Origin: Eleginops maclovinus
Taxonomy: Eukaryota; Chordata; Actinopteri; Perciformes; Eleginopidae
Length of the DNA: 64,000 nt
Direction of reading: 5' to 3'
Assembly (NCBI RefSeq): GCF_036324505.1
Contig: NC_086352.1
Location: 35,416,344 to 35,480,343, forward strand
Shown here: positions 1,553 to 55,227 of the stretch, in pieces
Position numbering within the stretch: the stretch's first letter is position 1
Layout: each line of letters starts with the position of its first letter
Notes under the pieces: model-generated
Database searches by the model: none
Told to the model about the DNA's origin: nothing
What the model saw: only the letters and a program-made list of their open reading frames with translations
Made by a program: the position numbers and the translations under genes

Positions 1553-1779
1553 AAAAATTTTATTTTTCGCCGTTCAGAAGCAGATCTCTCCCTTCCCTGT
1601 CACATCGCGAGTGCAGTAGAACCCGCCTCCTGTACTGCAGGATCTGCATTCTGATTGGCTAAAGCACTTCTGTGTCGAAAACTCTGTGTAACGATTGGCC
1701 TTGAACTTGTGTGTCGTTAACCCTATTTGAACATGGATACATATGCGCAAAAAAACCCACACATTTAAAATTCCATATG
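1553..1779. mobile_element. Left piece of a non-autonomous hAT element split by the IS3EU-like transposon
   Basis: The stretch from 1570 to 1779 matches 43217-43451 over most of its length, apart from a gap of about 29 bases, including the phrase GCCGTTCAGAAGCAGATC and a shared A-rich run near the end. The match continues beyond the big insertion at 12696-12771, which ends in the hAT-type terminus GGTTGGCCACCCCTG. The two pieces were therefore one element before the 10.9 kb insertion. The other hAT end is not visible upstream of 1553. Confidence 0.75.
1774..1779. repeat. Target-site duplication CATATG, left copy
   Basis: CATATG directly precedes the terminal TACGGAGC of the large transposon and is repeated at 12696-12701 directly after its other end. 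A 6-bp duplication fits IS3EU elements as remembered from the literature. Confidence 0.85.
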
Positions 1780-1835
1780 TACGGAGCCCGCGAAGGGTCA
1801 TGTTGGTAAATATTTTTATTGCGTTCCCTCGCAAT
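1780..1835 (+). repeat. Left terminal inverted repeat of the IS3EU-like element
   Basis: The first roughly 55 bases match 12640-12695 in inverse orientation with only a few mismatches. They run from TACGGAGC into the first palindromic array unit. Confidence 0.85.
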
Positions 1836-2012
1836 AGTTTTGCGTTCCCTCGCAATAGTTTTCCGTTCCCTCGCAATGGTATTGCGTTCCCTCGCAATAG
1901 TTTTGCGTTCCCTCGCAATAGTTTTTGCGTTCCCTCGCAATACTTTTTGCGTTCCCTCGCAATACTTTTTGCGTTCCCTCGCAAAACTTTTTGCGTTCCC
2001 TCGCAATACCTT
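1819..2012 (+). repeat. Left subterminal array: nine copies of a 21-23 bp palindromic unit
   Basis: Nine units with core TTGCGTTCCCTCGCAA are spaced 20-23 bp apart by short T-rich spacers. Each core is a small hairpin with stem TTGCG/CGCAA and a six-base loop. The same unit forms an inverted array at the other end of the transposon. Repeated subterminal motifs are often transposase binding sites in DNA transposons; that role is an inference here. Open reading frames across the array are artefacts of the repeat. Confidence 0.9.
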
Positions 2013-2099
2013 TTTGTGATCATTTTTTCCCCGTTGCTTTGCCTTTTCAAATTGGGCGGTACATTTCAGTTCCCATTGATGCAGCGCTGTCAGCGTCTA

Positions 2100-2144
2100 G
2101 GCTACCTGGATTCATGCTGGTGTAGGCTGGCCGGACACAAACAG
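2100..2144 (+). other. Possible 5' non-coding exon of the HECT-type gene
   Basis: A strong donor (ACAG followed by GTAAGT) ends at 2144, just inside the left array, upstream of and on the same strand as the HECT-type gene. Its start is not defined, and no coding frame crosses it. Confidence 0.3.
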
Positions 2145-2330
2145 GTAAGTTTGTTCCTATGTTTAATTTAAATTGTTACAGTGGTGTTTTGACCTCGTTT
2201 TGTGTGTGTTGCAGATAGACATTTGCTTAAGTTAAGCGTAAGTCAAAAGTTGCAAGTTCCGCATGTTTCCCCATGAGCAGTGTTTGACGTTAGAGTGAGC
2301 AGTGATTAGCCATTAACAGGGTAATGTTAA

Positions 2331-2475
2331 GTAAGGGATAACGGCTGCCGAGGTGTCCTGTTATACTGAATTAATGGACGAGGGCGAGGGGCAAATAACT
2401 CCCCGACGCGAAGCCTCCGACCGAGTCCATTAATTCCGTATAACTGTACACCTCGAAGGCTGTTATCCCGCTTAT
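2331..2475. repeat. Foldback (hairpin) repeat
   Basis: Two arms of about 50 bases, near 2334-2391 and 2422-2474, are inverted copies of each other. They run from GGGATAAC...GAGGTGT... to the reverse of GAATTAATGGAC. The arms enclose a GC-rich loop. It looks like a palindromic MITE inside the 5' region of the larger transposon. Confidence 0.6.
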
Positions 2476-2919
2476 CACCAGGTTGCCACTGTAGGCAACA
2501 GTCATTATAGCACGCAAAGGAAACAAGCGGTTCCGTTTGAAAAGAAGCCGACTTGTTCAGTTTGTTGTACGACTTTCGTTGGCCCTATAACAGCGATAGC
2601 ATGGACAGCTTGTTTACAGTTGATTCCATTGTTGAGAAGCCTGCCTCCAGGCTCAACCAGAGCCAGATAGCCTATGCCTACCAACTACATGAAACAATGT
2701 GTAACTTGCGATGCAAGGGAAGTTTTATTTCTAACATTAGGAATGCAGAGACCAAATGTCCCTCACGGGATCAAACGAGTAGGCCTATATAGGCTACTTA
2801 CTTAAACATGCATAGGCTAATTGTTGAGCCTGTGTAACTTTTGAAGTTCTCGTCAACCTTTTTTTTTAAACCAGCCATGCATGTACAGTACTTCATTCTG
2901 TGTTTCATCTTGTCTAGAC
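2476..2919 (+). other. 5' region of the HECT-type gene, possible untranslated exon
   Basis: An open frame at 2600-2789 begins with ATG but has no clear splice link to the main gene. It may be 5' untranslated sequence or an alternative first exon. The conserved start chosen for the protein is at 2920. Confidence 0.3.
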
Positions 2920-5900
2920 ATGGACCAGGAGCTGGAGGCTTTTCTAATGTCAAGGAATGTCTGTGAGGACAACCTGCAGAGAATGAAAATGGATGAGGTT
3001 GGCATGTTGATAATTTCACAGATCTCAACATTCTGGACATTGCTGATGATGTAGTTTTAAAACTATTTTGCTTAGTAGGGGCTTTTGTTAATCATGTTAA
3101 ATCATATTACTGTAGGCCTATCTTCATTACAACTGCACAGGTTAAACTAGACCATGCACCTACATCTTCTTGGGGGTGGGGGGTAATGGTTGTTAACTTT
3201 TTGTTTGTCATTGCAGATTGACAGAGCTGTCTTAAATGTTATGACAGACGCAGAGATGGCCAAATATATCCCTTCTTATGGCAGCCGCTTGGCAGTCCGG
3301 TCATTTTGTCACATAAAGGAAACGGATAGGCGGACAACCCAAGTTATACACAGGCTCCGCCAAAATATTGCAGAGGGAAAGAGAAAAAGATCTTTTGCTG
3401 AATCTTCCTCAGAGCGAAATTATGACCTGATGGCAAGACACAGGAACACAAATGCCTCAAGAAGCAAACGGAGAATTGAATTAGGTTGGCAACATTATCA
3501 TAATCATGACATTCATCAGGTTAGGTCTAAGAATGGTGGAGGTACAAGGCATCTGGCAGTGGAGAAAAGTACCATGGTGAAACAGATCATGGAGACTGCA
3601 AAGAATCTGTTCTTCCCAGAAGGCAAGTCACCTAAAGGATCGGTCGAGGACTTTACATATGAGATATGTGATTTCAAGAAACAGTCTGTGGACATGACTA
3701 CTACTATCGCTGACCTTTATGAGCAGTCAAAACTGAAAATGCTTAGACTTTACCTGTGTACAAAACCAACTGTACATTCGGTTCCAGACTCTGACGTTTC
3801 AGACACTGAGATCCATGAACAGGTATGAAACACCTAGTTTAATGATTGATGTTAATCAGCTTGTCTGACAACATGTCTGACAAGTAGATGAGGTTATGTG
3901 AATTGTGATATACTTTGTTAGATTTGTTGGCAATGGAAAATGTGTTTGCAGTCTTTGTGTGTTAGAATATTTTACCACATTGTTGATGGAATATGGGTTG
4001 ATTGGGATGGGTGTCTGGTCAAATGAAACTGAACTAAAGTAGTGTGTTATTTTAGGTCAAAGGTCCAAGTCCTGTGCATAAACCTGAGGCAGACAATGAG
4101 GATGAAGCTGAAAGCCCTCCACAGTCCTCCACACCAGATGTAGGCATATGTTGCTCAAGCCCAGGGCAATTGCATTATGATCTAAGTCCAGTTAGGCATT
4201 CCATTGGAGACACAGAAGGATTACCAGCCATATCTTTCCAGGCCCCAGCCATGCCCTCCTACCAGGTCGCTACCATTCCTTACCATCTTGAAGTCCCTGC
4301 AATCTTACTGGACCCCTATGAAAATGAAGTTTTCATCTTGCAAGATGATTTGAGTGGACAAGATATTTCCTATGAAAATGATACAACACTTCCAATCATG
4401 GGGGTAAGTTCTGAGGTGTTTTGGTTAGTAAATGAACAACATGTTTGGTTCTCAATGTTGCGTAGCACAGCACATCAGGCTTTTGAGGTAGTTATCTCTC
4501 TTATTGTGGGTGTTTCAGGTGCTATCAGAGGTACTACCCTATCAGCACACAATTGTTCTGTTGAACTATTTGTAGCTCAGTGGTGTAATTCTGACTTTGA
4601 TGCATACAAATAGAAGAGTAAGCTATTTAGGTATGTGGTTCAGTAATTAACCTTTCCAAGCTATGAAAATGTTCCTCTTGCAGGAGAGTGCGGTGATATC
4701 AAATACCCCCCCAGATCAAGGAAACCAGGTGTCTCATGGATTCGGTAACGCTCAACTCATTCCAGAGCTTGTTTATCCACCATCGATACCAGGTTAACAA
4801 CAGCTTGACCCTCTTGTATGTGGTTATACTGTATGTGTATGTACAGTGCCCCGCCCCCCCACAATTATTGGCACCTCTGGTAAAGTTTACTAAACACACA
4901 TGCAACAGACGTTTTCATCACATTCATTTACTAGTAATTAACCTTAATCATATCGCCTAAAGAAAAATTATACCTTGAAGAGAACCAAATGCATTTTGAT
5001 AAAGGACAGTTAAAGAAATAAATATCTTTGTACCCAAAACACATGTGCCACAGTTATTGGCACCTCTGCATTTTCTTCATTGCCAACCTCACTTTGCTGA
5101 TGTAAGTATTAGCCTTCTGATTTGGCATGCCATCAAGTTAGAGAACACATGATGTTTTTTAAAATAGCCAGCCATGCCCTGTCCCTGAAGTGAACACACT
5201 TTCTTGAAGGCATGTAATACATTTAATACACATGCATTTATTGAACATTATTGTCTGGCCAATACATATGGCATATCGAATAATGTGTTTAGCATTGTGT
5301 TTTCTCCAGATTAATTTGAGACTATTCCTTAATGTTTATTTTTTTATTTCCACTTCTTAGTCGTCTTTACCAGGGGTGCCAAAAGCTGTGCGCTAGAGGG
5401 ATTGGTATGTGCATGAGGGTGGGGGGAACTGGTGGAAAGGGGGTGCTGATGTTAAGTCTTGTGTGCGTCTGCTTGTGAGGCGTACTGACTGCAAAAACAA
5501 GTGTAGTATGGACAATAAAGCTATATATCTCTCTCTCCCTCTCCCTCTCTCTGACTATCCATGTCTCTATCTATCTATCCATCTATCTATCTTCCAGATC
5601 ACATGGATGGGGAAACAACAAATGAATCAGTTACATTGACTATTAGGAGGGGGCATTGTCTCATTGATTTAATCCAAGCCTTCAAACACCCAGATATTTT
5701 AAATATGGATGTCTCCATCAAGATGCGCCTTCCAAATGGAGCACTGGAGGAAGGAGAGGGTGGTGGTGTTAGAAGAGATTGCTTGACAGAGTTTTGGTCA
5801 GACTTTTATGAAAGATGCACCTTGGGAGGGGACGTTAAAGTCCCATTTATTAGGCATGATTACCAGCTTGAGGAATGGCAGGTAGTTGCAAGAATTTTAG

Positions 5901-6607
5901 TAGTCGGGTGGAGGTTGGCACGCTACTTTCCAGTTAAACTGGCGACTCCATTTCTTGAAGCCGCTTTGTACGGTAAAACCACCAGCAGCATGAAGGACTC
6001 CTTCATACAGTACGTCTCAGATAGCGAAAGAGAGGTTCTTCTTAAGGCTTTGGAAGACTTTAACTCTGTAGAAACGGATGACCTACTTGATGCCCTTGAG
6101 GCACACGATTGCCTGCAAATGCCAACCGAAGAGAATTTCATACCACTACTGTCACAAATGGGACACAAGGCTCTCCTACAGGCACCATTGTTTATCATTG
6201 AGAGTTGGCGTCCGATTTTGCAACACCTGACAACAGTTATGCCACCAGATGTTCTGCATGGTGTCATACGTCAGAAAACACCTACTGCCAAAGCTGTGAA
6301 GGAGCTTCTGATGTTCCCGCTTAACATGTCTCCTCTACAAACAACAGTTGCCAGATACTTGAAGAGATACCTAGGGGAAGTGGATATGTGCAAACTTCAG
6401 CTTTTCCTCCGCTTTTGCACTGGATCCAATTTGATTGAAGAAATTGAAGTTGAGTTCATTGAGACCTCAGAATTTCAGAGACGACCACAATCCCACACAT
6501 GTAGCAGTATTTTAAAACTACCTCTATGTTACCACAACTATCCAGAGCTGCGCAGTGATTTTAATAGCATACTCATCAGCTCTGTTTGGGTAATGGATAT
6601 TATCTAG
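2920..6607 (+). CDS. Transposon-borne HECT-type protein with SAM-like N terminus (G2E3-like)
   Basis: Five exons can be joined in frame: 2920-2997, 3217-3822, 4056-4403, 4684-4792 and 5598-6607, giving about 716 residues. Introns 2-4 have standard donors and acceptors. The first donor is a weak GTTGGC. Residues 1 to about 60 form a SAM-like unit, with motifs MDQELEAFL and YIPSYGSRLAV. The middle part is polar and low in recognisable motifs. The last 330 residues resemble a HECT domain (GGGVRRDCLTEFW, then RPILQHL). Near the end is SHTCSSILKLP, which matches the HECT catalytic-cysteine signature, with the cysteine at about residue 682. The protein ends in VMDII, as fish G2E3-like predictions do. 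No stop or frameshift was found. HECT proteins pass ubiquitin through this cysteine to substrates. Whether this one does, and how that would serve the transposon, is unknown. Confidence 0.82.
4844..5391. mobile_element. Tc1/mariner-type MITE in the HECT-gene intron
   Basis: The left end (starting CAGTGCCCC after TA) contains TTGGCACCTCTGGTAAAG. Near the right end the inverse reads TTGGCACCCCTGGTAAAG. There is no transposase inside. The element lies wholly within the intron between exons 4 and 5. Confidence 0.6.
5515..5596 (+). repeat. CT/CTAT simple repeat forming the polypyrimidine tract of an acceptor
   Basis: A CT- and CTAT-rich tract runs directly into the TTCCAG acceptor of exon 5 of the HECT-type gene. 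Confidence 0.8.
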
Positions 6608-7062
6608 GTCAGATAACTGAATGTTTGTGCTTTGTTCATAGCTTATGATCTGTATTTTAACATTTACAAGAGACTGATGTAAGCTGAACAAGCAATTTGT
6701 TTACAGTGGGACAGGGACTTGTGTTTTATTTGTTTCTTTTGTCACTAAGCAACCTGTGTCAACCTACTCTTTAGAAAATGTGATTTCCTGTTTTTGCACT
6801 GTCATGTATTTTAATATATTAAGATGTTAATTAGGTCTGTTTAAGACCTTTGTTTAGATTCATACCCTTGTCACTAAAGCAACCCGTGTCAACCTACTCT
6901 TTAGAAAATATTATTTCCTGTTCTGGCATTGTGATATATGTTTATACATTAAGATGTTAATGAGTTACCTCCAAAAGTATTGGTTTTATAAGGCTGTTTG
7001 CACTTTGTTCCATAGATGAGTTCAATAAACTGGAAACATTTTTCACTCTTGCTACAGTGTGA
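6608..7062 (+). other. 3' UTR of the HECT-type gene with an internal tandem duplication
   Basis: A block of about 100 bases at 6740-6840 is repeated at 6869-6972 with some divergence; both contain CAACCTACTCTTTAGAAAAT. A polyadenylation signal follows at 7024-7029. Confidence 0.7.
7024..7029 (+). terminator. Polyadenylation signal AATAAA of the HECT-type gene
   Basis: AATAAA lies about 420 bases after the stop codon, before the convergent transposase gene. Confidence 0.55.
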
Positions 7063-7519
7063 AAATGACTGCTGTGTTACTTCATAGATTAGAGTACTGT
7101 CATACATTTTGTGTAGTAAAACACAAACAGTTTGTTTGAGCTTTGCAGGAGAACAAATTTACTCATTTTATGCCAAGATGTTGTCATGTAAAATTAAGAG
7201 GTCATTCAGATACAATATCTTTAAGATATCTATATAATCTTTCAGTTCAATAGAAATGGGGAACACTGTTTTATCAATTCCCCATTTCAGGCACTACAAT
7301 GTTCCTACTGTTTAAATTATTTGTAATTGGCGTAATAATAAAAGTAAAGATAAAACATTTGATGAAGAAAGAACATACCTTCTTGTTGCATGAAAACATG
7401 CTTGCAGCTCTGCGAAGTTTAACAATAGAGTACACACATTGTATTGTATTTGTACATGTATTTCAATTTGTGCATTGCTTGCACATATGGGACTACATAT
7501 TTTTGTGAGTAACTGCAGT

Positions 7520-10500
7520 CTATGTGTCATGTGCAAAAGGAACTCTGTCAAGATCAAAGACCCTGATCAGCTCTGATCTCAGTGAAAGGTAGAGATCAAT
7601 GGCCATATATGCATCGCCTGGAACCTGGAAGTTTTTTTCTGCCATTATGCTGGTACAGAGGATGAACAGATCATCGTCACATGCAATAACATGGCGATGA
7701 GTGCAGTACTCTTCACATCTGCCTAGATCTTCCTCTGCCACAGGGCACAAATAGTCCTCTGTGCCATATAACTCTGGAATGGTGTACATGGCATCAGGCC
7801 GGCCATGGGGAACGTGCACATTCTTTGAAGGACGAATCAGGTGGTGGTTCCAAGTATTTTTGGTTAAGTCCAGGTCATCCTGCAGAGGTGAAAATGGATA
7901 AACACATTTTAGGCAACTCTGAATGGTTTACAAACTTCTTCAGACCAAGGACCACTGAGAGTGTAGGCCTACTGTAGCCATTACCTTTACAGCAAGGGGA
8001 AAACGTAATGGGTAGCATAATACTTGCCTCCACTATTACATAGAAATGTAAAAAATCCAAGGACAGGGCAGTAACATGAAATCTTACACCGTTTTTCACT
8101 CTACTTCATGATGGTAAAACGTGTGACACAGCTGACTAGCAGCTGAGTGCGGTTCAGTTTATCGTTGCCAGGGCAACGGGTAGCTCATTGGTCGTTTGCA
8201 CATAAATAAAGACCAATCATTTAGAGCAGTGTTTCTCAAACTTTTTCAGACCAAGGACCACTTAACAAATAAAAAAATACTCACGGACCACCTAACTCCC
8301 CCAATATCCCAAAACAAGATTCAAGATTCAAGAAGCTTTATTAATCCCGAGGGAAATTGAGGTGCAACAGTTCAATACAAAGAACGAAGGAGAAATATAC
8401 ACTAAATATAACTAAATATAAACTAGAATAAATACAATAGGCCTGCTTACTACTCCAACAGTATATTACAAATTACAACCTAATAATAACAGCTTTATGT
8501 GACCTTCTCTATATCGCTCGTTCACACATTAAATCAACAATACAAATACAACTACGGATTCTACAAGCATTTTGTTCACATGCAATTTAAACGGTAAATG
8601 CTGATAGATTTTACACATCATATGAAACATAGACTACATTTATTACTGAGTTTATGTCCGAGCGAACAGAGAGATACGCAAAATGCACCGCATTTAGTAC
8701 CACACAAACTTCTGCTGTGTATTTTCAAAAATAAAACACAGTAAAACTATGGTTGCAGGTCCAAATTTAACAAGAATTTAACAATAGACACAAGGTAATT
8801 ATTTACACTGTTACATTTACAAATAGCATTGTTTACTCACTCATACACTGTGTGTCTCTGTTGCTACCTAATGGGAGGAATGGTGCTGCTTTTGCTGAGA
8901 CATCAGTGAAACAATGTCTGGATCCAAACTGGAGAGTTTTAGTCTCATATCACAGTCCACATTGATCCTGTTACGCTGCTTTGTTTTCAGACCAACAAGT
9001 GTAGAAAAACCAACTTCACAGTTGTAGGTGGTTGGAAACGGCATCAACCGTTTCAGAGCAGCGTCAGCCAGCTCTGGGTGCTCAGGCTGGACGTGGACCC
9101 AAAAGTCCGTCAAGCTTTTCTCTCTGAAAGTCGTCCTCAGTGTCCCATCAGATGCGATGTCCACAAGGCTGTCAACCTGTTTTGATGGGAGCTTGGAACT
9201 GACGTGTTCGATGTGCGTTTGGTCCACAAATGGATTCCTGATCCACTCATAGCCTGCATCTAGTTCTGGGAAATATCTTCCCAGCTGAAAGTGAAGGCCT
9301 TGCAGATGTTCCTTGAAGGCTGCAACTGTGCCGCCGTCCAGCTCTTCATCTGCAGCGAGGAGAAAACCCACAAGCGTCGGAAAACAGTCAAACTCCTGGC
9401 GATCCAGACGGACACACCACAATTCCATCTTGAGGCGTGCAGCTTTAATTTTGTCCTGCACATTGAAGGCGGTGACGGCTTTTCCCTGCAGCGCTAAGTT
9501 CAAAGCATTGAGTGCACTTAAGACATCGGCCAGGTATGCCAATTTTGAGAGCCACTGGAAATCATGCAGTCTGTCATACAGTTCAACAGTATGATGCAAT
9601 AATAACATCACCTCATCGCGCAGTTCAAATAGACGGGTGAGAACTTTCCCACGTGACAGCCAGCGAACTTCAGTATGGAAAAGCAGTTTTGTGTGTTCAC
9701 TTCCCATTTCATCACACAGAGCTTTAAAAAGACGTGTGTTCAGTGCTTTGGTTTTTATTGTATTAACAATTTTCACAGACTCGTCCAGTACTGATTTGAG
9801 GCATGGTGGCATTTTTTTCACAGCCAGCTGTTCTCTGTGAATGCAACAGTGTGTTGCTGTGGCGCAAGGTGCAACTGCGCATACGCGCGCTGCCAGTCCC
9901 TTGTGTTTCCCAGTCATTGCAGTTGCACCATCTGTGCAAATACCAACACATCGTGTCCAGTCGATATTATTCTGCAGGATGAAATCGTTGACTGAGTCAA
10001 AAATGGCTTCCCCTGTGGTGTTGGTCGGCAGGGAACGACAAAACAGAAATTCATCCTGCACACCGCCATCATAAATGTACCTTACAAAACACAGCAGATT
10101 TGCCTCATTCACGATATCAGTTGACTCGTCCAGTTGCAGTGTGAAAAACTGGCTTTGGCGTAAACGTGTGATCAGCTGATCTTTCACATTTTCGGCCATG
10201 GCTGTTATTCGCCGCTGGACAGTATCATTGGAGAGGGAGACCCTGCTAATTTCGTCGCTTGCTTTCTCCCCAAACAATACATTAGCCATAACCTTGGCAG
10301 CTGGTTTGACTAAATTCTCACCTATCGAATGAGGTTTCCCTGTTTTTGCGATGAGAAGGGATACCCTGTATGATGCCTCTGTAGCCTTCGCATTTTCCCC
10401 CGTCGCAAAAAAATGTGAGGGCGCCTTCGTCACGTGTTTTTTAAGTTCATCACGTTCTCTCAAACAATGCTAAAGGTTTCCCGATGTAATCCTTGTGTTT

Positions 10501-12324
10501 GATCTCAAAATGACGCTTGAGCTTGGCGGGTTTCATAGCCTCGTTAGCCAACGACTCGTAGCACAAAACACAGTGTGGATTGGGATCCTCTCCATCTCCA
10601 GTCCAGAAAAATCCGAATTTTATGTAGTCGCTGTGATAATTTCTCTTCACTTTAGCGCTGGACTTTCCGCGATCAAGCCGAGTTTCACAGCTTTCAGCCG
10701 GGTGGTGGTTAGACGGCGAACCGCTCTCCTGGGACTCAGTAACGCACACAAAATCACATGTCGCTGCGGCTGAACCACTTGTAGTTGCTGGATCTCCTGC
10801 ATCAGGACGATGCACCTTGACTGTCACGTCAGATTTGTCATTTAATTTTCTTTTAACTGACCCTGTCTTTAGCCATCGATCCATCTTGTCAGTTGACAGC
10901 TCAAATTGACCGCGCAAATCATTTATGACGTAAGATCGTAACATAGGCTACGTAGATACGAACCTACGTAGCTACGCTACATCTATGCTACACTCTATAC
11001 TAGTCATTTTAAGACAGTTTGAGAAACACTTTAAACTTATAATATATTAATTTCAAATGTGACATTTTACCAAAATACTCACGGACCAATAGGGGTCGCT
11101 CACGGACCACCAGTGGTCCACGGACCACTCTTTGAGAAAGACTGATTTAGAGTAGCCTACTATATTACTACATTAGGCGTATATGATCATATTGTTATAA
11201 TTGCACTGTAGCCTAAGTCATAATTTGTTAGCCTATACTTTTAGTCATGTGTATTGTATGGAGTTTAATATCTGGGACTCAAGTTGCCAAAGCATCTGCT
11301 TACCCGCATATGTCTCTCATTCTTTCAGAATAAACCACATAATTTAAATACCCTGTCACCAGTGGAGTAAATAGAACTTCATATGTAGGCCTATGTGTAA
11401 CACCTGCACGGGCCCAAAGGGTATGTCGGTGTATAGCCTATTAGATAGGCCTATCCCCGAAATGAGAGTAAGAAAAACTTTCGGGAAGTCACTTACCTGT
11501 ATTAAGGCCAGAAAGCAAAACAGCATGAGGTTCTTGTCCAAGAAATCGCCAACGAAATCCCCTTCATCCTTTAGACGGTGAAAGTGGCCCAGCCAAAAGT
11601 CAACGCATTCTTTGCGGAGAAAGCCCCACCAGCTCTCGATCCTTTGGTTACTCGTGCTTCTTCCATACATGAAGCTTCGCTCACCTCCATGGGCATCAGT
11701 GTCGTTGCGGCGAAGGTGGCGTTGCATGTCTCGGATAGAGCAGTTTTCTGTCCCCATGTCCGTCCTGACAATACGAGCACACCCTCCAAGTTCCTGCGCT
11801 GTTTCCAGGTAGTAGCCTCCTACCACCTTGGGGTCGCTGCTGGTGCAGTAGGCATTTAACCAGAGCATTCGCCTAGAAAACCCGTCAATGGCCCCGTTGA
11901 TACAAATGCCGAAGGGTTTCAATTTGTCATAAGAATCGACATGCCAAATAAAATTCGGTCCCTTGGCGAAGTATGCCCTTCGAGACAGTCTCCTGCTTCT
12001 CCTACGCTCTGTTCCCTCCGGATCCAATGTGGACAATATGATCCTGACATCCTCCTTCCTGATGGACATGCCCTTCTCTTGACATCTGGCATGCATAACT
12101 CGGTAGCCATGCAGGCCTCCAGAGTCTCGGAGTCCTCTCCGAATAAAGCGCACGGCATCTTCTAGTGTATCATGCCTCCGCCGAAACAGACCGTTTTTCT
12201 TTAAAATGCGCTTCAGAGTCTTCATGCTAATAATCACATTGTGCCTCACTGACAAAGCCTCCAGTATATTATTATATGAGAGCCCAAGGTTAAAGTAAAA
12301 CTTAATAAAGTCCAGGTTATCCAT
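7520..12324 (-). CDS. IS3EU-like DDE transposase (rve/integrase core)
   Basis: Two exons join in phase 0: 12324-11497 (276 codons) and 7879-7520 (119 codons plus stop), about 395 residues. The donor is CAG/GTAAGT and the acceptor is CTCTGCAG. The start MDNLDFIKF was chosen as the last ATG before the conserved region. Residues 1-50 look helix-turn-helix. LHGYRVMHARC at about 71-81 resembles the HTH_21 region of bacterial IS3 OrfB. The catalytic triad is visible as D130 (IWHVDSYDK), D189 (VRTDMGTEN) and E230 (NQRIESWWG). The second exon adds a conserved C-terminal region (HVPHGRPDAMY, RLRPS-type context). The product should cut and join transposon ends in the nucleus. No stop codon interrupts it. 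The 3.6 kb intron contains a complete hAT insertion that leaves both splice sites intact. Confidence 0.85.
8227..11144 (-). mobile_element. hAT transposon, ZBED5-like, copy 1 (nested)
   Basis: The element is 2,918 bp with inverted ends CAGTGTTTCTCAAACTTTTT and CTCTTTGAGAAAGACTG. It is flanked by a perfect 8-bp target duplication, ATTTAGAG, at 8219-8226 and 11145-11152. It sits in the intron of the transposase of the larger element. Near 8325-8350 it carries a LINE-tail-like phrase (AAGCTTTATTAATCCCGAGG) present in both copies. Confidence 0.95.
8868..10944 (-). pseudogene. ZBED5-like hAT transposase, one frameshift
   Basis: Two overlapping frames make up the protein. The N-terminal part (10944-10450) has a BED/C2H2-type finger (CVLCYESLANEAMKPAKLKRHFEI pattern, CxxC then HxxxxH). 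The C-terminal part (10463-8868, 531 codons) has the hAT catalytic region, with LQLDESTDI, CTDGATAMTG, TEVRWLSRGKVL, and the dimerisation end PTTYNCEVGFSTL. The frames meet in a short GA run at about 10455-10470, where two bases appear to be missing. The second copy in this window has the same change. Everything else in this copy is open. Such proteins excise and insert the element in the nucleus. Confidence 0.9.
11145..11496 (-). other. Remainder of the transposase intron
   Basis: This is the intron between the nested hAT and the first transposase exon. Nothing else is recognised here. Confidence 0.5.
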
Positions 12325-12426
12325 GGTGACTGAAATCCAAATCAACCGTGTAGCCTATTGTGAGGTTGGAAATACAGAGCCCTATTCAAGGGAGCACAAA
12401 AGTTATTGTGAGGAAAAAAGTAGCCT

Positions 12427-12656
12427 ATTGCGAGGGAACGCAAAAGTTATTGCGAGGGAACGCAAAAAGTATTGCGAGGGAACGCAAAACTATTGCGTGG
12501 GAACGCAAAACTATTGCGAGGGAACGCAAAAAGCATTGCGAGGGAACGCAAAACTATTGCGAGGGAACGCAAAACTATTGCGAGGGAACGCAAAACTATT
12601 GCGTGGGAACGCAAAACTATTGCGAGGGAACGCAAAACTATTGCGAGGGAACGCAA
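12427..12656 (-). repeat. Right subterminal array: eleven copies of the palindromic unit, inverted
   Basis: Eleven units with core TTGCGAGGGAACGCAA (the reverse of the left-end unit) sit at 21-22 bp spacing, with two units carrying GCGTGGG. Degenerate units continue outward to about 12390. The arrays at the two ends point in opposite directions. Confidence 0.9.
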
Positions 12657-12695
12657 TGAAAATATTTACCAACGTGACCCTTCGCGGGCTCCGTA
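12640..12695 (-). repeat. Right terminal inverted repeat of the IS3EU-like element
   Basis: This is the inverse of 1780-1835 and ends in GGGCTCCGTA directly before CATATG. Confidence 0.85.
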
Positions 12696-12771
12696 CATAT
12701 GTACTGAGGAGCCGCATGAGACTGGGCAAAGAGCCGCATGCGGCTCGAGAGCCGCGGGTTGGCCACCCCTG
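12696..12771. mobile_element. Right piece of the hAT element split by the IS3EU-like transposon
   Basis: It begins with the second CATATG and continues TACTGAGGAGCCGC, as does the uninterrupted relative near 43446-43481. It ends in GGTTGGCCACCCCTG, an hAT-type terminus. Confidence 0.75.
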
Positions 12772-13847: not shown

Positions 13848-15451
13848 CAGTGGGGCAAAAAAGTATTTAGTCAGCCACCAATTGTGCAAGTTCTCCCATT
13901 TAAAAAGATGAGAGAGGCCTGTAATTTTCATCATAGGTACACTTCAACTATGAGAGACAGAATGGGGGAAACAATCCAGGAAATCACATTGTAGGATTTT
14001 TAATGAATTAATTGGTAAATTCCTCTGTAAAATAAGTATTTGGTCACCTACAAACAAGCAAGATTTCTGGCTCTCACAGACCTGTAACTTCTTCTTTAAG
14101 AGGCTCCTCTGTCCTCCACTCGTTACCTGTATTAATGGCACCTTTTTGAACTCGTTATCAGTATAAAAGACACCTGTCCACAACCTCAAACAGTCATACT
14201 CCAAACTCCACTATGGCCAAGACCAAAGAGCTGTCAAAGGAGACCCGAGACTAAATTGTAGACCTGCACCAGGCTGGGGAAACTGAATCTGCAATAGGTA
14301 AGCAGCTTGGTGTGAAGAAATCAACTGTGGGAGCAATTATTAGAAAATGGAAGACATACAAGACCACTGCTAATCTCCCTCGATCTGGGGCTCCACGCAA
14401 GATCTCACCCCGTCGGGTCAAAATGATCACAAGAACGGTGAGCAAAAATCCCAGAACCACACGGGGGGACCTAGTCAATGACCTGCAGAGAGCTGGGACC
14501 AAAGTAACAGAGGCTACCATCAGTAACACCCTACGCCGCCAGGGACTTAAATCCTGCACTTCCAGACGTGTCCCCCTGCTTAAGCCAGTACATGTCCAGG
14601 CCCGTCTGAAGTTTGCTAGAGGGCATTTGGATGATCCAGAAGAGGATTGGGAGAATGTCATATGGTCAGATGAAACCAAAATAGAACTTTTTGGTAAAAA
14701 CTCAACTCGTCGTGTTTGGAGGAGAAAGAATGCAGAGTTGCATCCAAAGAACACCATACCTACTGTGAAGCATGGGGGTGGAAACATCATGCTTTGGGGC
14801 TGTTTTTCTGCAAAGGGACCAGGACGACTGATCCGTGTAAAGGAAAGAATGAATGGGGCCATGTATCGTGAGATTTTGAGTGAAAACCTCCTTCCATCAG
14901 CAAGGGCACTGAAGATGAAGCATGGCTGGGTCTTTCAGCATGACAATGATCCCAAACACACCGCCAGGGCAACGAAGGAGTGGCTTCGTAAGAAGCATTT
15001 CAAGGTCCTGGAGTGGCCTAGCCAGTCTCCAGATCTCAAACCCATAGAAAATCTTTGGAGGGAGTTGAAAGTCCGTGTTGCCCAGCGACAGCCCCAAAAC
15101 ATCACTGCTTTAGAGGAGATCTGCATGGAGGAATGGGCCAAAATACCAGCAACAGTGTGTGAAAACCTTGTGAAGATTTACAGAAAACGTTTGACCTCTG
15201 TCATTGCCAACAAAGGGTATATTACAAAGTATTGAGATGAACTTTTGTTATTGACCAAATACTTATTTTCCACAATCATTTGAAAATAAATTCATTAAAA
15301 ATCCTACAATGTGATTTCCTGGATTTTTTTTTCTCATTTTGTCTCTCATAGTTGAGGTATACCTATGATAAAAATTACAGGCCTCTCTCATCTTTTTAAA
15401 TGGGAGAACTTGCACAATTGGTGGCTGACTAAATACTTTTTTGCCCCACTG
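13848..15451 (+). mobile_element. Tc1/mariner transposon with long inverted repeats
   Basis: It is flanked by TA (13846-13847 and 15452-15453). The inverted ends start CAGTGGGGCAAAAAAGTATT and extend for about 200 bases each (about 13848-14045 and 15252-15451). Between them is a nearly intact transposase. Confidence 0.95.
14213..15235 (+). pseudogene. Tc1 transposase, open except for one early stop
   Basis: Translation from the usual start MAKTKELSK at 14213 meets a TAA at 14252-14254, codon 14. After that the frame is open for about 326 codons to the stop at 15235, so full family length (about 340) is otherwise kept. The paired-like DNA-binding part has VGAIIRKWK and [10 protein letters not shown]. 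The catalytic triad is seen in [23 protein letters not shown] and [11 protein letters not shown]. It acts by cut-and-paste at TA sites. An internal ATG at 14312 would give a protein lacking part of the first DNA-binding helix set. Confidence 0.93.
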
Positions 15452-18800: not shown

Positions 18801-18957
18801 ACATAAGCTGGTGCGCAGTGCTCATGGATGAATTAATGTTTTTATGAGCATTGAAAACATTATAATGAGAACCACATCCAAGTATGATAGGGTTCATTTG
18901 AGTAGCACTACCAAACATTTTTACTGTGTAGATAGAGTACTCTACGAGCCTCTAGAT

Positions 18958-21874
18958 CAGTGTTTCTCAAACTTTTTCAGACCAAGGACCACTTAACCAA
19001 TAAAAAAATACTCACGGACCACCTAACTCCCCCAATATCCCAAAACAAGATTCAAGATTCAAGAAGCTTTATTAATCCCGAGGGAAATTGAGGTGCAACA
19101 GTTCAATACAAAGAACGAAGGAGAAATATACACTAAATATAACTAAATATAAACTAGAATAAATACAATAGGCCTGCTTACTACTCCAACAGTATATTAC
19201 AAATTACAACCTAATAATAACAGCTTTATGTGACCTTCTCTATATCGCTCGTTCACACATTAAATCAACAATACAAATACAACTACGGATTCTACAAGCA
19301 TTTCGTTCACATGCGATTTAAACGGTAAATGCTGATAGATTTTACACATCATATGAAACATAGACTACATTTATTACTGAGTTTATGTCCGAGCGAACAG
19401 AGAGATACGCAAAATGCACCGCATTTAGTACCACACAAACTTCTGCTGTGTATTTTCAAAAATAAAACACAGTAAAACTATGGTTGCAGGCCCAAATTTA
19501 ACAAGAATTTAACAATAGACACAAGGTAATTATTTACACTGTTACATTTACAAATAGCATTGTTTACTCACTCATACACTGTGTGTCTCTGTTGCTACCT
19601 AATGGGAGGAATGGTGCTGCTTTTGCTGAGACATCAGTGAAACAATGTCTGGATCCAAACTGGAGAGTTTTAGTCTCATATCACAGTCCACATTGATCCT
19701 GTTACGCTGCTTTGTTTTCAGACCAACAAGTGTAGAAAAACCAACTTCACAGTTGTAGGTGGTTGGAAACGGCATCAACCGTTTCAGAGCAGCGTCAGCC
19801 AGCTCTGGGTGCTCAGGCTGGACGTGGACCCAAAAGTCCGTCAAGCTTTTCTCTCTGAAAGTCGTCCTCAGTGTCCCATCAGATGCGATGTCCACAAGGC
19901 TGTCAACCTGTCTTGATGGGAGCTTGGAACTGACGTGTTCGATGTGCGTTTGGTCCACAAATGGATTCCTGATCCACTCATAGCCTGCATCTAGTTCTGG
20001 GAAATATCTTCCCAGCTGAAAGTGAAGGCCTTGCAGATGTTCCTTGAAGGCTGCAACTGTGCCGCCGTCCAGCTCTTCATCTGCAGCGAGGAGAAAACCC
20101 ACAAGCGTCGGAAAACAGTCAAACTCCTGGCGATCCAGACGGACACACCACAATTCCATCTTGAGGCGTGCAGCTTTAATTTTGTCCTGCACATTGAAGG
20201 CGGTGACGGCTTTTCCCTGCAGCGCTAAGTTCAAAGCATTGAGTGCGCTTAAGACATCGGCCAGGTATGCCAATTTTGAGAGCCACTGGAAATCATGCAG
20301 TCTGTCATACAGTTCAACAGTATGATGCAATAATAACATCACCTCATCGCGCAGTTCAAATAGACGGGTGAGAACTTTCCCACGCGACAGCCAGCGAACT
20401 TCAGTATGGAAAAGCAGTTTTGTGTGTTCACTTCCCATTTCATCACACAGAGCTTTAAAAAGACGTGTGTTCAGTGCTTTGGTTTTTATTGTATTAACAA
20501 TTTTCACAGACTCGTCCAGTACTGATTTGAGGCATGGTGGCATTTTTTTCACAGCCAGCTGTTCTCTGTGAATGCAACAGTGTGTTGCTGTGGCGCAAGG
20601 TGCAACTGCGCATACGCGCGCTGCCAGTCCCTTGTGTTTCCCAGTCATTGCAGTTGCACCATCTGTGCAAATACCAACACATCGTGTCCAGTCGATATTA
20701 TTCTGCAGGATAAATCGTTGACTGAGTCAAAAATGGCTTCCCCTGTGGTGTTGGTCGGCAGGGAACGACAAAACAGAAATTCATCCTGCACACCGCCATC
20801 ATAAATGTACCTTACAAAACACAGCAGATTTGCCTCATTCACGATATCAGTTGACTCGTCCAGTTGCAGTGTGAAAAACTGGCTTTGGCGTAAACGTGTG
20901 ATCAGCTGATCTTTCACATTTTCGGCCATGGCTGTTATTCGCCGCTGGACAGTATCATTGGAGAGGGAGACCCTGCTAATTTCGTCGCTTGCTTTCTCCC
21001 CAAACAATACATTAGCCATAACCTTGGCAGCTGGTTTGACTAAATTCTCACCTATCGAATGAGGTTTCCCTGTTTTTGCGATAAGAAGGGATACCCTGTA
21101 TGATGCCTCTGTAGCCTTCGCATTTTCCCCCGTCGCAAAAAAATGTGAGGGCGCCTTCGTCATGTGTTTTTTAAGTTCATCACGTTCTCTCAAACAATGC
21201 TAAAGGTTTCCCGATGTAATCCTTGTGTTTGATCTCAAAATGACGCTTGAGCTTGGCGGGTTTCATAGCCTCGTTAGCCAACGACTCGTAGCACAAAACA
21301 CAGTGTGGATTGGGATCCTCTTCATCTCCAGTCCAGAAAAATCCGAATTTTATGTAGTCGCTGTGATAATTTCTCTTCACTTTAGCGCTGGACTTTCCGC
21401 GATCAAGCCGAGTTTCACAGCTTTCAGCCGGGTGGTGGTTAGACGGCGAACCGCTCTCCTGGGACTCAGTAACGCACACAAAATCACATGTCGCTGCGGC
21501 TGAACCACTTGTAGTTGCTGGATCTCCTGCATCAGGACGATGCACCTTGACTGTCACGTCAGATTTGTCATTTAATTTTCTTTTAACTAACCCTGTCTTT
21601 AGCCATCGATCCATCTTGTCAGTTGACAGCTCAAATTGACCGCGCAAATCATTTATGACGTAAGATCGTAACATAGGCTACGTAGATACGAACCTACGTA
21701 GCTACGCTACATCTATGCTACACTCTATACTAGTCATTTTAAGACAGTTTGAGAAACACTTTAAACTTATAATATATTAATTTCAAATGTGACATTTTAC
21801 CAAAATACTCACGGACCAATAGGGGTCGCTCACGGACCACCAGTGGTCCACGGACCACTCTTTGAGAAAGACTG
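18958..21874 (-). mobile_element. hAT transposon, ZBED5-like, copy 2
   Basis: The ends are identical to those of copy 1 (8227-11144). It is 2,917 bp, one base shorter. The flanking 8 bp are CTCTAGAT (18950-18957) and CTCTAAAT (21875-21882), a target duplication with one mismatch that differs from that of copy 1, so it is an independent insertion. About a dozen differences from copy 1 were seen by eye. Confidence 0.95.
19599..21674 (-). pseudogene. ZBED5-like hAT transposase, two frameshifts
   Basis: The domain order is the same as in copy 1: finger frame 21674-21180, middle frame 21193-20645, catalytic and dimerisation frame 20648-19599. It shares the GA-run frameshift with copy 1. It has an additional one-base deletion near 20710 (GATGAAATC in copy 1, GATAAATC here), which truncates the frame at codon 182. 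Confidence 0.92.
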
Positions 21875-29622: not shown

Positions 29623-43836
<14,214 letters not shown>

Positions 43837-53728: not shown

Positions 53729-55227
53729 CTGTGAAGGAAATAAGTATTTGATCCCCTGCCGATTTTGTTAGTTTGCCCACTTACAAAGATCTGAACAGTC
53801 TATACTTTTAATGGTAGGTTTATTTAACACTGAGACAGAGTATCAAAAAGAAAATCCAGAAATGTACATAAAAAAAGTATATAAATTGATTTGCTTTAAT
53901 TGGGGGAAACAAGTATTTGATCCCCTTGCAAAACATGCCTCAGTTCTTGGTGGAGAAAGCCTTGTTGGACAGCACAGAGGTCAGATGCTCAGGTGGGATT
54001 TTGGTCCTCTCCTGTCTGCAGATTCTCTCAAAATCCTTAAGGTTTGGAGGCTGATGCTTGGCAACTGGAAGCTTCAGCTCCCTTCAAAGATTTTCTATGG
54101 GATGGAGGTCCGGAGACTGGCTAGGCCCCTCCATCATATTAATGGGGTTCTTCTTGGCCTTATGTTTTGGGTCATTGTCGTGCTGGAAGACCTATCCATC
54201 TCCCATTTTCAGTGTCCTGGCTGAGGGAAGGAGGTTATCAGCCAATATTTTACGATACGTGGCCCCCTCCCATCACCCCTTCAATGCGGTGAATCGCCCT
54301 GTCCCCTTAGCAGAGAAACCCCCCAAAGCATCATGTTTCTACCTCTGTGCTTGACGCTGGGGATGCTGTTCTTGGGGTCATAGGCAGCATTTCTCTTCCT
54401 CCAAACACGACATGTCGAGTTGATGCCAAAGATCTTGATGTTGGTCTCATCTGACCACATCACCTTCTCAGAAGCCTCACTGGCAGACTTCAGACAGGGG
54501 ACCTTACGGGCACTGCAGGATTTTAATCCATTACGGCGCAGTGTGTTACCAATAGTTTTCTTGGTGACTGTGGTCCCAGCTGCCTTCAGATCAATAACAA
54601 GTCCCTCATGTGTAGTTATTGACTGACCTTTCACCTTTCTCATGATCATTGATGCCCCATGAGGCAAGATCTTAGATGGTGGAGCCCCAGATTGAGGGAG
54701 ATTGATGGTCATTCTGTGCTTCTTCCATTTTCTAATAATCAAACCAGTTGTCTCTTTCTCACCAAGCTGCTTGCTGGTGGTCTTGTCTTCTATCCCAGCG
54801 TTGTGCTGGTCTACGATCTTGTCCCTGATGTCCTTAGACATTAGTTCCACCATGATCACAAGACCTGTCTATGGTCTTGCCCTCGGTGGAGAGGTTGTAA
54901 TGTGATTTATTGACTGTGGACAGGTGCCTTTTATCCAGGTAAAGAGTTGATATTAAGAGTACTTTGTTAAAGCCAGAGGACTTACTTAACCAGTCCGTGG
55001 GAGTCAGAACTCTTGTTGGTTGCAAGGGGATCAAATACTTATTTCCCACAATTAAACGCAAATCAATTTATATTTTTTTCAAAATTATATTTCTGGATTT
55101 CCTTTATGATATTCTGTCTCTCACTGTTAAAATAAACATACCATTTAAAAGTATGGACTGTTCATTTCTTTGTAAATGGGCAAACTGACAAAATCGGCAG
55201 GGGATCAAATTCTTATTTCCTTTGCTG
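53729..55227 (-). mobile_element. Tc1/mariner transposon, degraded
   Basis: It is flanked by TA (53727-53728 and 55228-55229). The inverted ends carry GAAGGAAATAAGTATTTGAT and the inverse of GGAAATAAGAATTTGATCCC. The long inverted repeats are diverged. It sits in the first ASB7 intron, about 180 bases upstream of the coding exon. Confidence 0.9.
53940..54859 (-). pseudogene. Tc1 transposase, deleted and frameshifted
   Basis: The start reads [20 protein letters not shown], then [14 protein letters not shown] gap of roughly 20 codons lies just before [13 protein letters not shown], and [14 protein letters not shown] follows. From about 54280 the catalytic C-terminal half continues in other frames with the second Asp and Glu region degraded. 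Confidence 0.88.

What the first reader, a model, noticed from the sequence alone, without database searches (positions are those of the whole stretch)
1780..12695. A 10.9 kb IS3EU-like transposon encoding its own transposase plus an apparently complete HECT-type protein
Seen directly: inverted ends starting TACGGAGC, a perfect 6-bp duplication CATATG, a two-exon rve transposase with its DDE triad (D130, D189, E230), and a five-exon gene ending in a HECT-like catalytic-cysteine motif (SHTC, cysteine at about 682). The genes converge, and no stop or frameshift was found in either. A DNA transposon that brings a ubiquitin-ligase-type protein suggests a system in which the element modifies host or transposase proteins. 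That role is an inference. HECT-like genes near such transposases in fish may already be listed as G2E3-like loci.
Basis: partly seen in the sequence, partly recalled or inferred. Interest (0 to 1): 0.85.

Follow-up and report, generated by a model that had tools for sequence, protein, structure and literature searches.

The report
Fish transposon carrying a ubiquitin-ligase gene
A complete-looking fish DNA transposon of the IS3EU type carries, besides its own transposase, an intact gene whose predicted shape is that of a ubiquitin ligase with its active-site cysteine, a kind of cargo that may help the transposon deal with its host cell.

The parts
1774..1779 (.). left target-site duplication CATATG
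   Evidence: empty-site paralogue
12696..12701 (.). right target-site duplication CATATG
1780..1818 (+). left terminal inverted repeat TACGGAGCCCGCGAAGGGTCA...
   Evidence: 2 mismatches to the right end in the outer 40 nt
12657..12695 (-). right terminal inverted repeat
1819..2016 (+). left subterminal array, 9 units of ~21-22 bp with palindromic core TTGCGttccctCGCAA (putative transposase binding sites, inferred)
12425..12656 (-). right subterminal array, 11 units, inverted relative to the left
2920..2997 (+). HECT-type gene, coding exon 1 (ATG)
3217..3822 (+). HECT-type gene, coding exon 2; aa ~109-212 model as a ubiquitin-like beta-grasp domain
4056..4403 (+). HECT-type gene, coding exon 3 (poorly conserved linker)
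4684..4792 (+). HECT-type gene, coding exon 4
5598..6607 (+). HECT-type gene, coding exon 5: HECT domain, Cys682, stop codon 6605-6607
11497..12324 (-). transposase coding exon 1 (ATG at 12324; D130, D189, E230; rva_4)
7520..7879 (-). transposase coding exon 2, stop TAG at 7520-7522
   Evidence: same splice junction in Eleginops protein P0037
8227..11144 (-). younger hAT element nested in the transposase intron (not part of the IS3EU element)
   Evidence: TSD ATTTAGAG 8219-8226 / 11145-11152; 99.6% identical copy at 18953-21874
43205..43465 (+). paralogous repeat without the insertion (empty-site comparison; not part of the element)

Best explanation
This is one full-length, potentially autonomous cut-and-paste DNA transposon of the IS3EU (IS3EU/GingerRoot) kind that encodes two proteins: a DDE transposase and a HECT-type ubiquitin ligase with an N-terminal helical segment, a ubiquitin-like domain and a poorly conserved linker. 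Shown: one insertion with TSD and matching ends, an empty-site paralogue, two open gene models with catalytic residues kept across relatives, and a HECT fold prediction over both lobes. Inferred: the transposase binds the ~21-bp subterminal palindromes, pairs the ends, cuts and inserts with a 6-bp stagger; the E3 takes ubiquitin from an E2 on Cys682 and passes it to a substrate bound through its N-terminal half, most likely a host factor that limits transposition or repair, or the transposase complex itself. I put such a helper or counter-host role at about 0.45. The confidence below is for the anatomy and for an E3-type (not merely HECT-derived) protein.
Against: The window's protein scores below Pfam's HECT cut-off (21.3 full length, 23.1 for exon 5; cut-off 23.9), and a profile of the family finds no PDB chain by sequence. 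12 of 17 same-species pairs do not share a contig; of the 5 that do, only Boleophthalmus has consecutive tags. Transposases of this kind give 1298 hits but the HECT protein only 45 distinct ones (both searches score capped candidate lists), so many IS3EU elements seem to do without it, or annotation drops it. The transposases linked to HECT genes elsewhere are far from the window's own in the tree. No transcript, dN/dS or other genomic copy could be examined.
Confidence: 0.8

Rival explanations
1. The HECT gene is a passenger caught by chance in one or a few elements, with no role in transposition, and will decay.
For: Far fewer HECT relatives than transposase relatives. The N-terminal half diverges fast: exon 2 identity 31-43% over 29 relatives, against 59-84% in 20 and 28-49% in 5 of 25 relatives for exon 5.
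Against: Open over 716 codons; catalytic cysteine kept in 34 of 34 covering relatives; a protein family spread over fishes, frogs, a hemichordate and a snail (the last two are partial models); adjacency in Boleophthalmus.
Confidence: 0.3
2. The HECT gene belongs to a separate mobile element or host gene and only lies inside these ends by nesting or composite insertion.
For: The region is full of nested elements, including a hAT inside the transposase intron; linked transposases elsewhere are from other branches.
Against: No repeat pair flanking the HECT gene appears among the 20 largest direct families (of 43) and 25 longest inverted pairs (of 96) shown; both genes sit between one pair of ends; gene pair in another fish.
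Confidence: 0.12
3. The protein keeps a HECT fold but is not an active ligase; it acts as a ubiquitin or E2 binder or as a partner of the transposase.
For: N-lobe sequence is very divergent (Pfam matches only profile positions 214-289). Host G2E3 is recalled as having a HECT domain of disputed activity (from memory, no call).
Against: The cysteine and the TC motif are kept in 34 of 34 covering relatives.
Confidence: 0.2

Closest known systems
IS3EU / GingerRoot superfamily (PMC10045372, passages seen)
   Same: TA..TA ends, 6-bp TSD, DDE transposase of integrase type
   Different: No HECT gene is mentioned in that paper (0 occurrences of 'hect' and 'ubiquitin' in its main text)
Fungal IS3EU elements with TET/JBP and alpha-kinase genes (PMC12730594, passages seen)
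   Same: TAYGG..CCRTA ends, 6-bp TSD, TIRs over 30 bp, transposase plus a gene for a protein-modifying enzyme in opposite orientation
   Different: The partner is an alpha-kinase (with a TET/JBP dioxygenase), not an E3 ligase ('ubiquitin' 0 occurrences); fungi, not fish
Kolobok lineages with accessory proteins (PMC9587614, passages seen)
   Same: DNA transposons whose lineages each carry a distinct second protein
   Different: Other superfamily with TTAA target; nucleases, helicase or KolX instead of a HECT protein
HECT E3 ligases HUWE1/Tom1, UBR5, NEDD4 family (structures)
   Same: Predicted fold of both lobes and catalytic cysteine
   Different: About 13-18% identity; encoded by a transposon; N-terminal half not matched to theirs by Pfam

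Membership tests
IS3EU superfamily | TA..TA termini (TAYGG..CCRTA in fungal members) | tested here: met
   TACGG..CCGTA; rule from PMC10045372 and PMC12730594
IS3EU superfamily | 6-bp target-site duplication | tested here: met
   CATATG both sides; single 6-mer GATATG at the empty-site paralogue
IS3EU superfamily | rve-type DDE transposase | tested here: met
   rva_4 E 4.7e-26; triad
IS3EU superfamily | no integrase HHCC N-terminal motif | tested here: inconclusive
   no integrase zinc-binding family among the Pfam matches up to E 1; motif not examined by hand
IS3EU superfamily | groups with Repbase IS3EU transposases in a tree | not testable with these tools
   Repbase is not available
HECT E3 ligase | bilobed HECT fold | tested here: met
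HECT E3 ligase | catalytic cysteine in TC motif | tested here: met
   C682; 34 of 34 covering relatives of 45 found
HECT E3 ligase | Pfam PF00632 at gathering score | tested here: not met
   window 21.3 / 23.1 bits against 23.9; of 5 relatives scanned alone P0001, P0003, P0030 and P0035 pass, P0031 does not
HECT E3 ligase | ubiquitin transfer activity | not testable with these tools
   needs a biochemical assay
G2E3 | PHD/RING-like N-terminal domains (recalled) and orthology to G2E3 | not tested
   no PHD or RING family among the Pfam matches of this protein; no G2E3 sequence was compared

The most novel reading that the evidence does not exclude
Animal IS3EU transposons have a lineage with a self-encoded ubiquitin ligase that the element uses against its host or to disassemble or time its own transpososome, the animal counterpart of the kinase-bearing IS3EU elements of fungi: the second gene slot of IS3EU repeatedly holds a protein-modifying enzyme.
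Probability: 0.35. Interest if true: 0.82.

Novelty: new variant of a known kind. Interest (0 to 1): 0.62.

Why it matters
The second proteins of DNA transposons named in the passages I saw are mostly nucleic-acid-acting (nucleases, helicases, TET/JBP), with the fungal alpha-kinase as an exception. A transposon-borne HECT ligase would be a handle on how cut-and-paste elements act on host proteins. It is directly testable by ubiquitin assay and by transposition with and without the cysteine. It would also explain a set of uncharacterized fish and frog HECT proteins as transposon genes rather than host genes.

Tried and rejected
Copies elsewhere in the genome: the genome search on the own genome was asked 17 times and never answered. 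Viral contigs gave nothing for the HECT alignment, the transposase exon or the array pattern. Prokaryotic genome contigs gave two loci (ORFs), probably eukaryotic sequence in MAGs (inference); tblastn of relative P0003 finds no HECT protein in either at E <= 1.

Exact 8-mer ends as evidence: rejected as weak alone; the long arms, the TSD and the empty-site paralogue carry the argument. The paralogue match past the junction is short: 13 of the first 14 nt of the right flank, then a separate piece of 23 of 24 nt.

Shared contig in Xenopus, Astyanax and Paramisgurnus: kept only as weak support, because a chromosome is long; the Xenopus locus tags are far apart. Oryzias melastigma tags are 8 apart on a 2.26-Mb contig, so perhaps two elements.

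Horizontal transfer: the HECT domain pairs the window with Alosa pseudoharengus (86%, support 100/100) rather than with Dissostichus, and Coilia falls in a group with Gouania, Oreochromis and Sarotherodon, whose inner forks are partly weak (fish relationships recalled). This fits mobility or old paralogy; transfer between species is not claimed.

N-terminal ~60 aa as a SAM domain: my impression from memory, no Pfam support, dropped. Families not listed were not taken as absent.

Literature: 10 searches, seen as listings, some cut (20 of 35, 30 of 143, 8 of 9, 5 of 66). ranks papers with more of the terms first, and its first rows hold two of 'HECT', 'DNA transposon', 'IS3EU'; no listed paper holds both 'IS3EU' and 'HECT'. 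No listed title or abstract start describes a HECT gene on a DNA transposon. Repbase/Dfam entries and closed journals could not be searched, so a database note is possible. Of papers opened, only passages were seen (PMC10045372, PMC12730594, PMC9587614, PMC12763893).

Full report
What was checked. The window has one insertion from 1780 to 12695 between two copies of CATATG. The outer 40 nt of the ends differ at 2 places. Behind them lie arrays of a ~21-bp unit whose core TTGCG-TTCCCT-CGCAA is an inverted repeat, 9 copies on the left and 11 in inverted orientation on the right, and none elsewhere in the 64 kb with up to 2 mismatches (arrays also). A repeat at 43205-43465 is 79% identical (206 of 262 columns) to the left flank and goes on for 14 nt of the right flank (13 match) where the two flanks are joined; a second piece of 24 nt (23 match) follows, at 43459-43482. 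At the junction it has a single 6-mer, GATATG. This fits a clean insertion with a 6-bp duplication.

Genes. The plus-strand gene has five coding exons and 716 codons with no stop; its four introns have GT..AG ends. The minus-strand gene has two exons and 395 codons, again with a GT..AG intron. An annotated Eleginops maclovinus protein (P0037, PBY51_019572) is 100% identical over 81% of it and spans the same splice junction, which suggests that the host is this species and that another gene prediction found the same intron. That intron holds a nested hAT with 8-bp duplications that has a copy at 18953-21874 of 99.6% identity, so the insertion looks recent; it leaves the coding parts untouched.

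Transposase. It matches Pfam rva_4 (E 4.7e-26) and 1298 proteins; the 120 listed include fishes, frogs, echinoderms, molluscs and beetles. In an alignment of these 120 and the window the triad is kept in 120, 120 and 121 of 121 rows. Ends and TSD meet the published description of IS3EU (TA..TA, usually 6 bp: PMC10045372, passages; TAYGG..CCRTA in fungal members: PMC12730594, passages).

Distribution and linkage. 45 distinct relatives of the HECT protein were found (36, 9 further): fishes, three frogs, a hemichordate and a snail among the named ones, plus unnamed assemblies. The hemichordate model covers the HECT part only, and the snail model lacks the C-terminal end, so the full architecture is seen in fishes and frogs. 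Of 17 same-species pairs that could be formed from the listed hits, 5 share a contig length (12 pairs, 5 by hand); 12 do not; 2 more were dropped for want of a contig length. The HECT-domain tree is at odds with fish relationships as I recall them, as expected of a mobile gene or of old paralogues.

How it most likely works. The transposase part follows established DDE cut-and-paste chemistry. The HECT part most likely charges ubiquitin on Cys682 and marks a protein chosen by its N-terminal half. Host restriction factor, repair factor or transposase as substrate are all untested. Since far more IS3EU-type transposases than HECT partners were found, the ligase is probably not needed by the superfamily at large; in this lineage it is an added trait.

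Against what is known. Fungal IS3EU elements with TET/JBP carry an alpha-kinase gene in opposite orientation to the transposase (PMC12730594). Kolobok lineages carry different second proteins (PMC9587614). None of the papers listed by the ten searches describes, as far as titles and abstract starts show, a HECT ligase on such an element. Hence: a new variant of a known kind, with the caveat that Repbase could not be searched.

Noticed in passing
window 8227-11144 and 18953-21874: Two hAT copies 99.6% identical, one nested in the transposase intron; recent hAT activity. ORFs of 533 aa and 165 aa in the first copy; in the second the long frame is split into 184 and 375 aa.
   Followed up: partly
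window 43205-43465: Related repeat that gives the empty site of the IS3EU insertion.
   Followed up: yes
window 2335-2469: Palindromic stretch with 52-nt arms (81% complementary) in the 5' part of the element, upstream of HECT coding exon 1; perhaps a small inserted element.
   Followed up: no
window 4860-5390: MITE-like piece with inverted ends (34 nt, 79% complementary) in HECT intron 4.
   Followed up: no
window 6739-6964: Direct repeat of ~97 bp, 87% identical, in the region between the two convergent genes; AATAAA/ATTAAA-type signals at 7024 (+) and at 6815 and 6730 (-).
   Followed up: no
window 14255-15235: Open 326-aa frame that looks like a Tc1/mariner transposase; a degraded relative at 54281-54868. 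Naming by eye.
   Followed up: no
L001 1107-3080: 657-aa frame with a DDE integrase related to the IS3EU transposase on a contig filed as a Myxococcales MAG; perhaps eukaryotic sequence.
   Followed up: no
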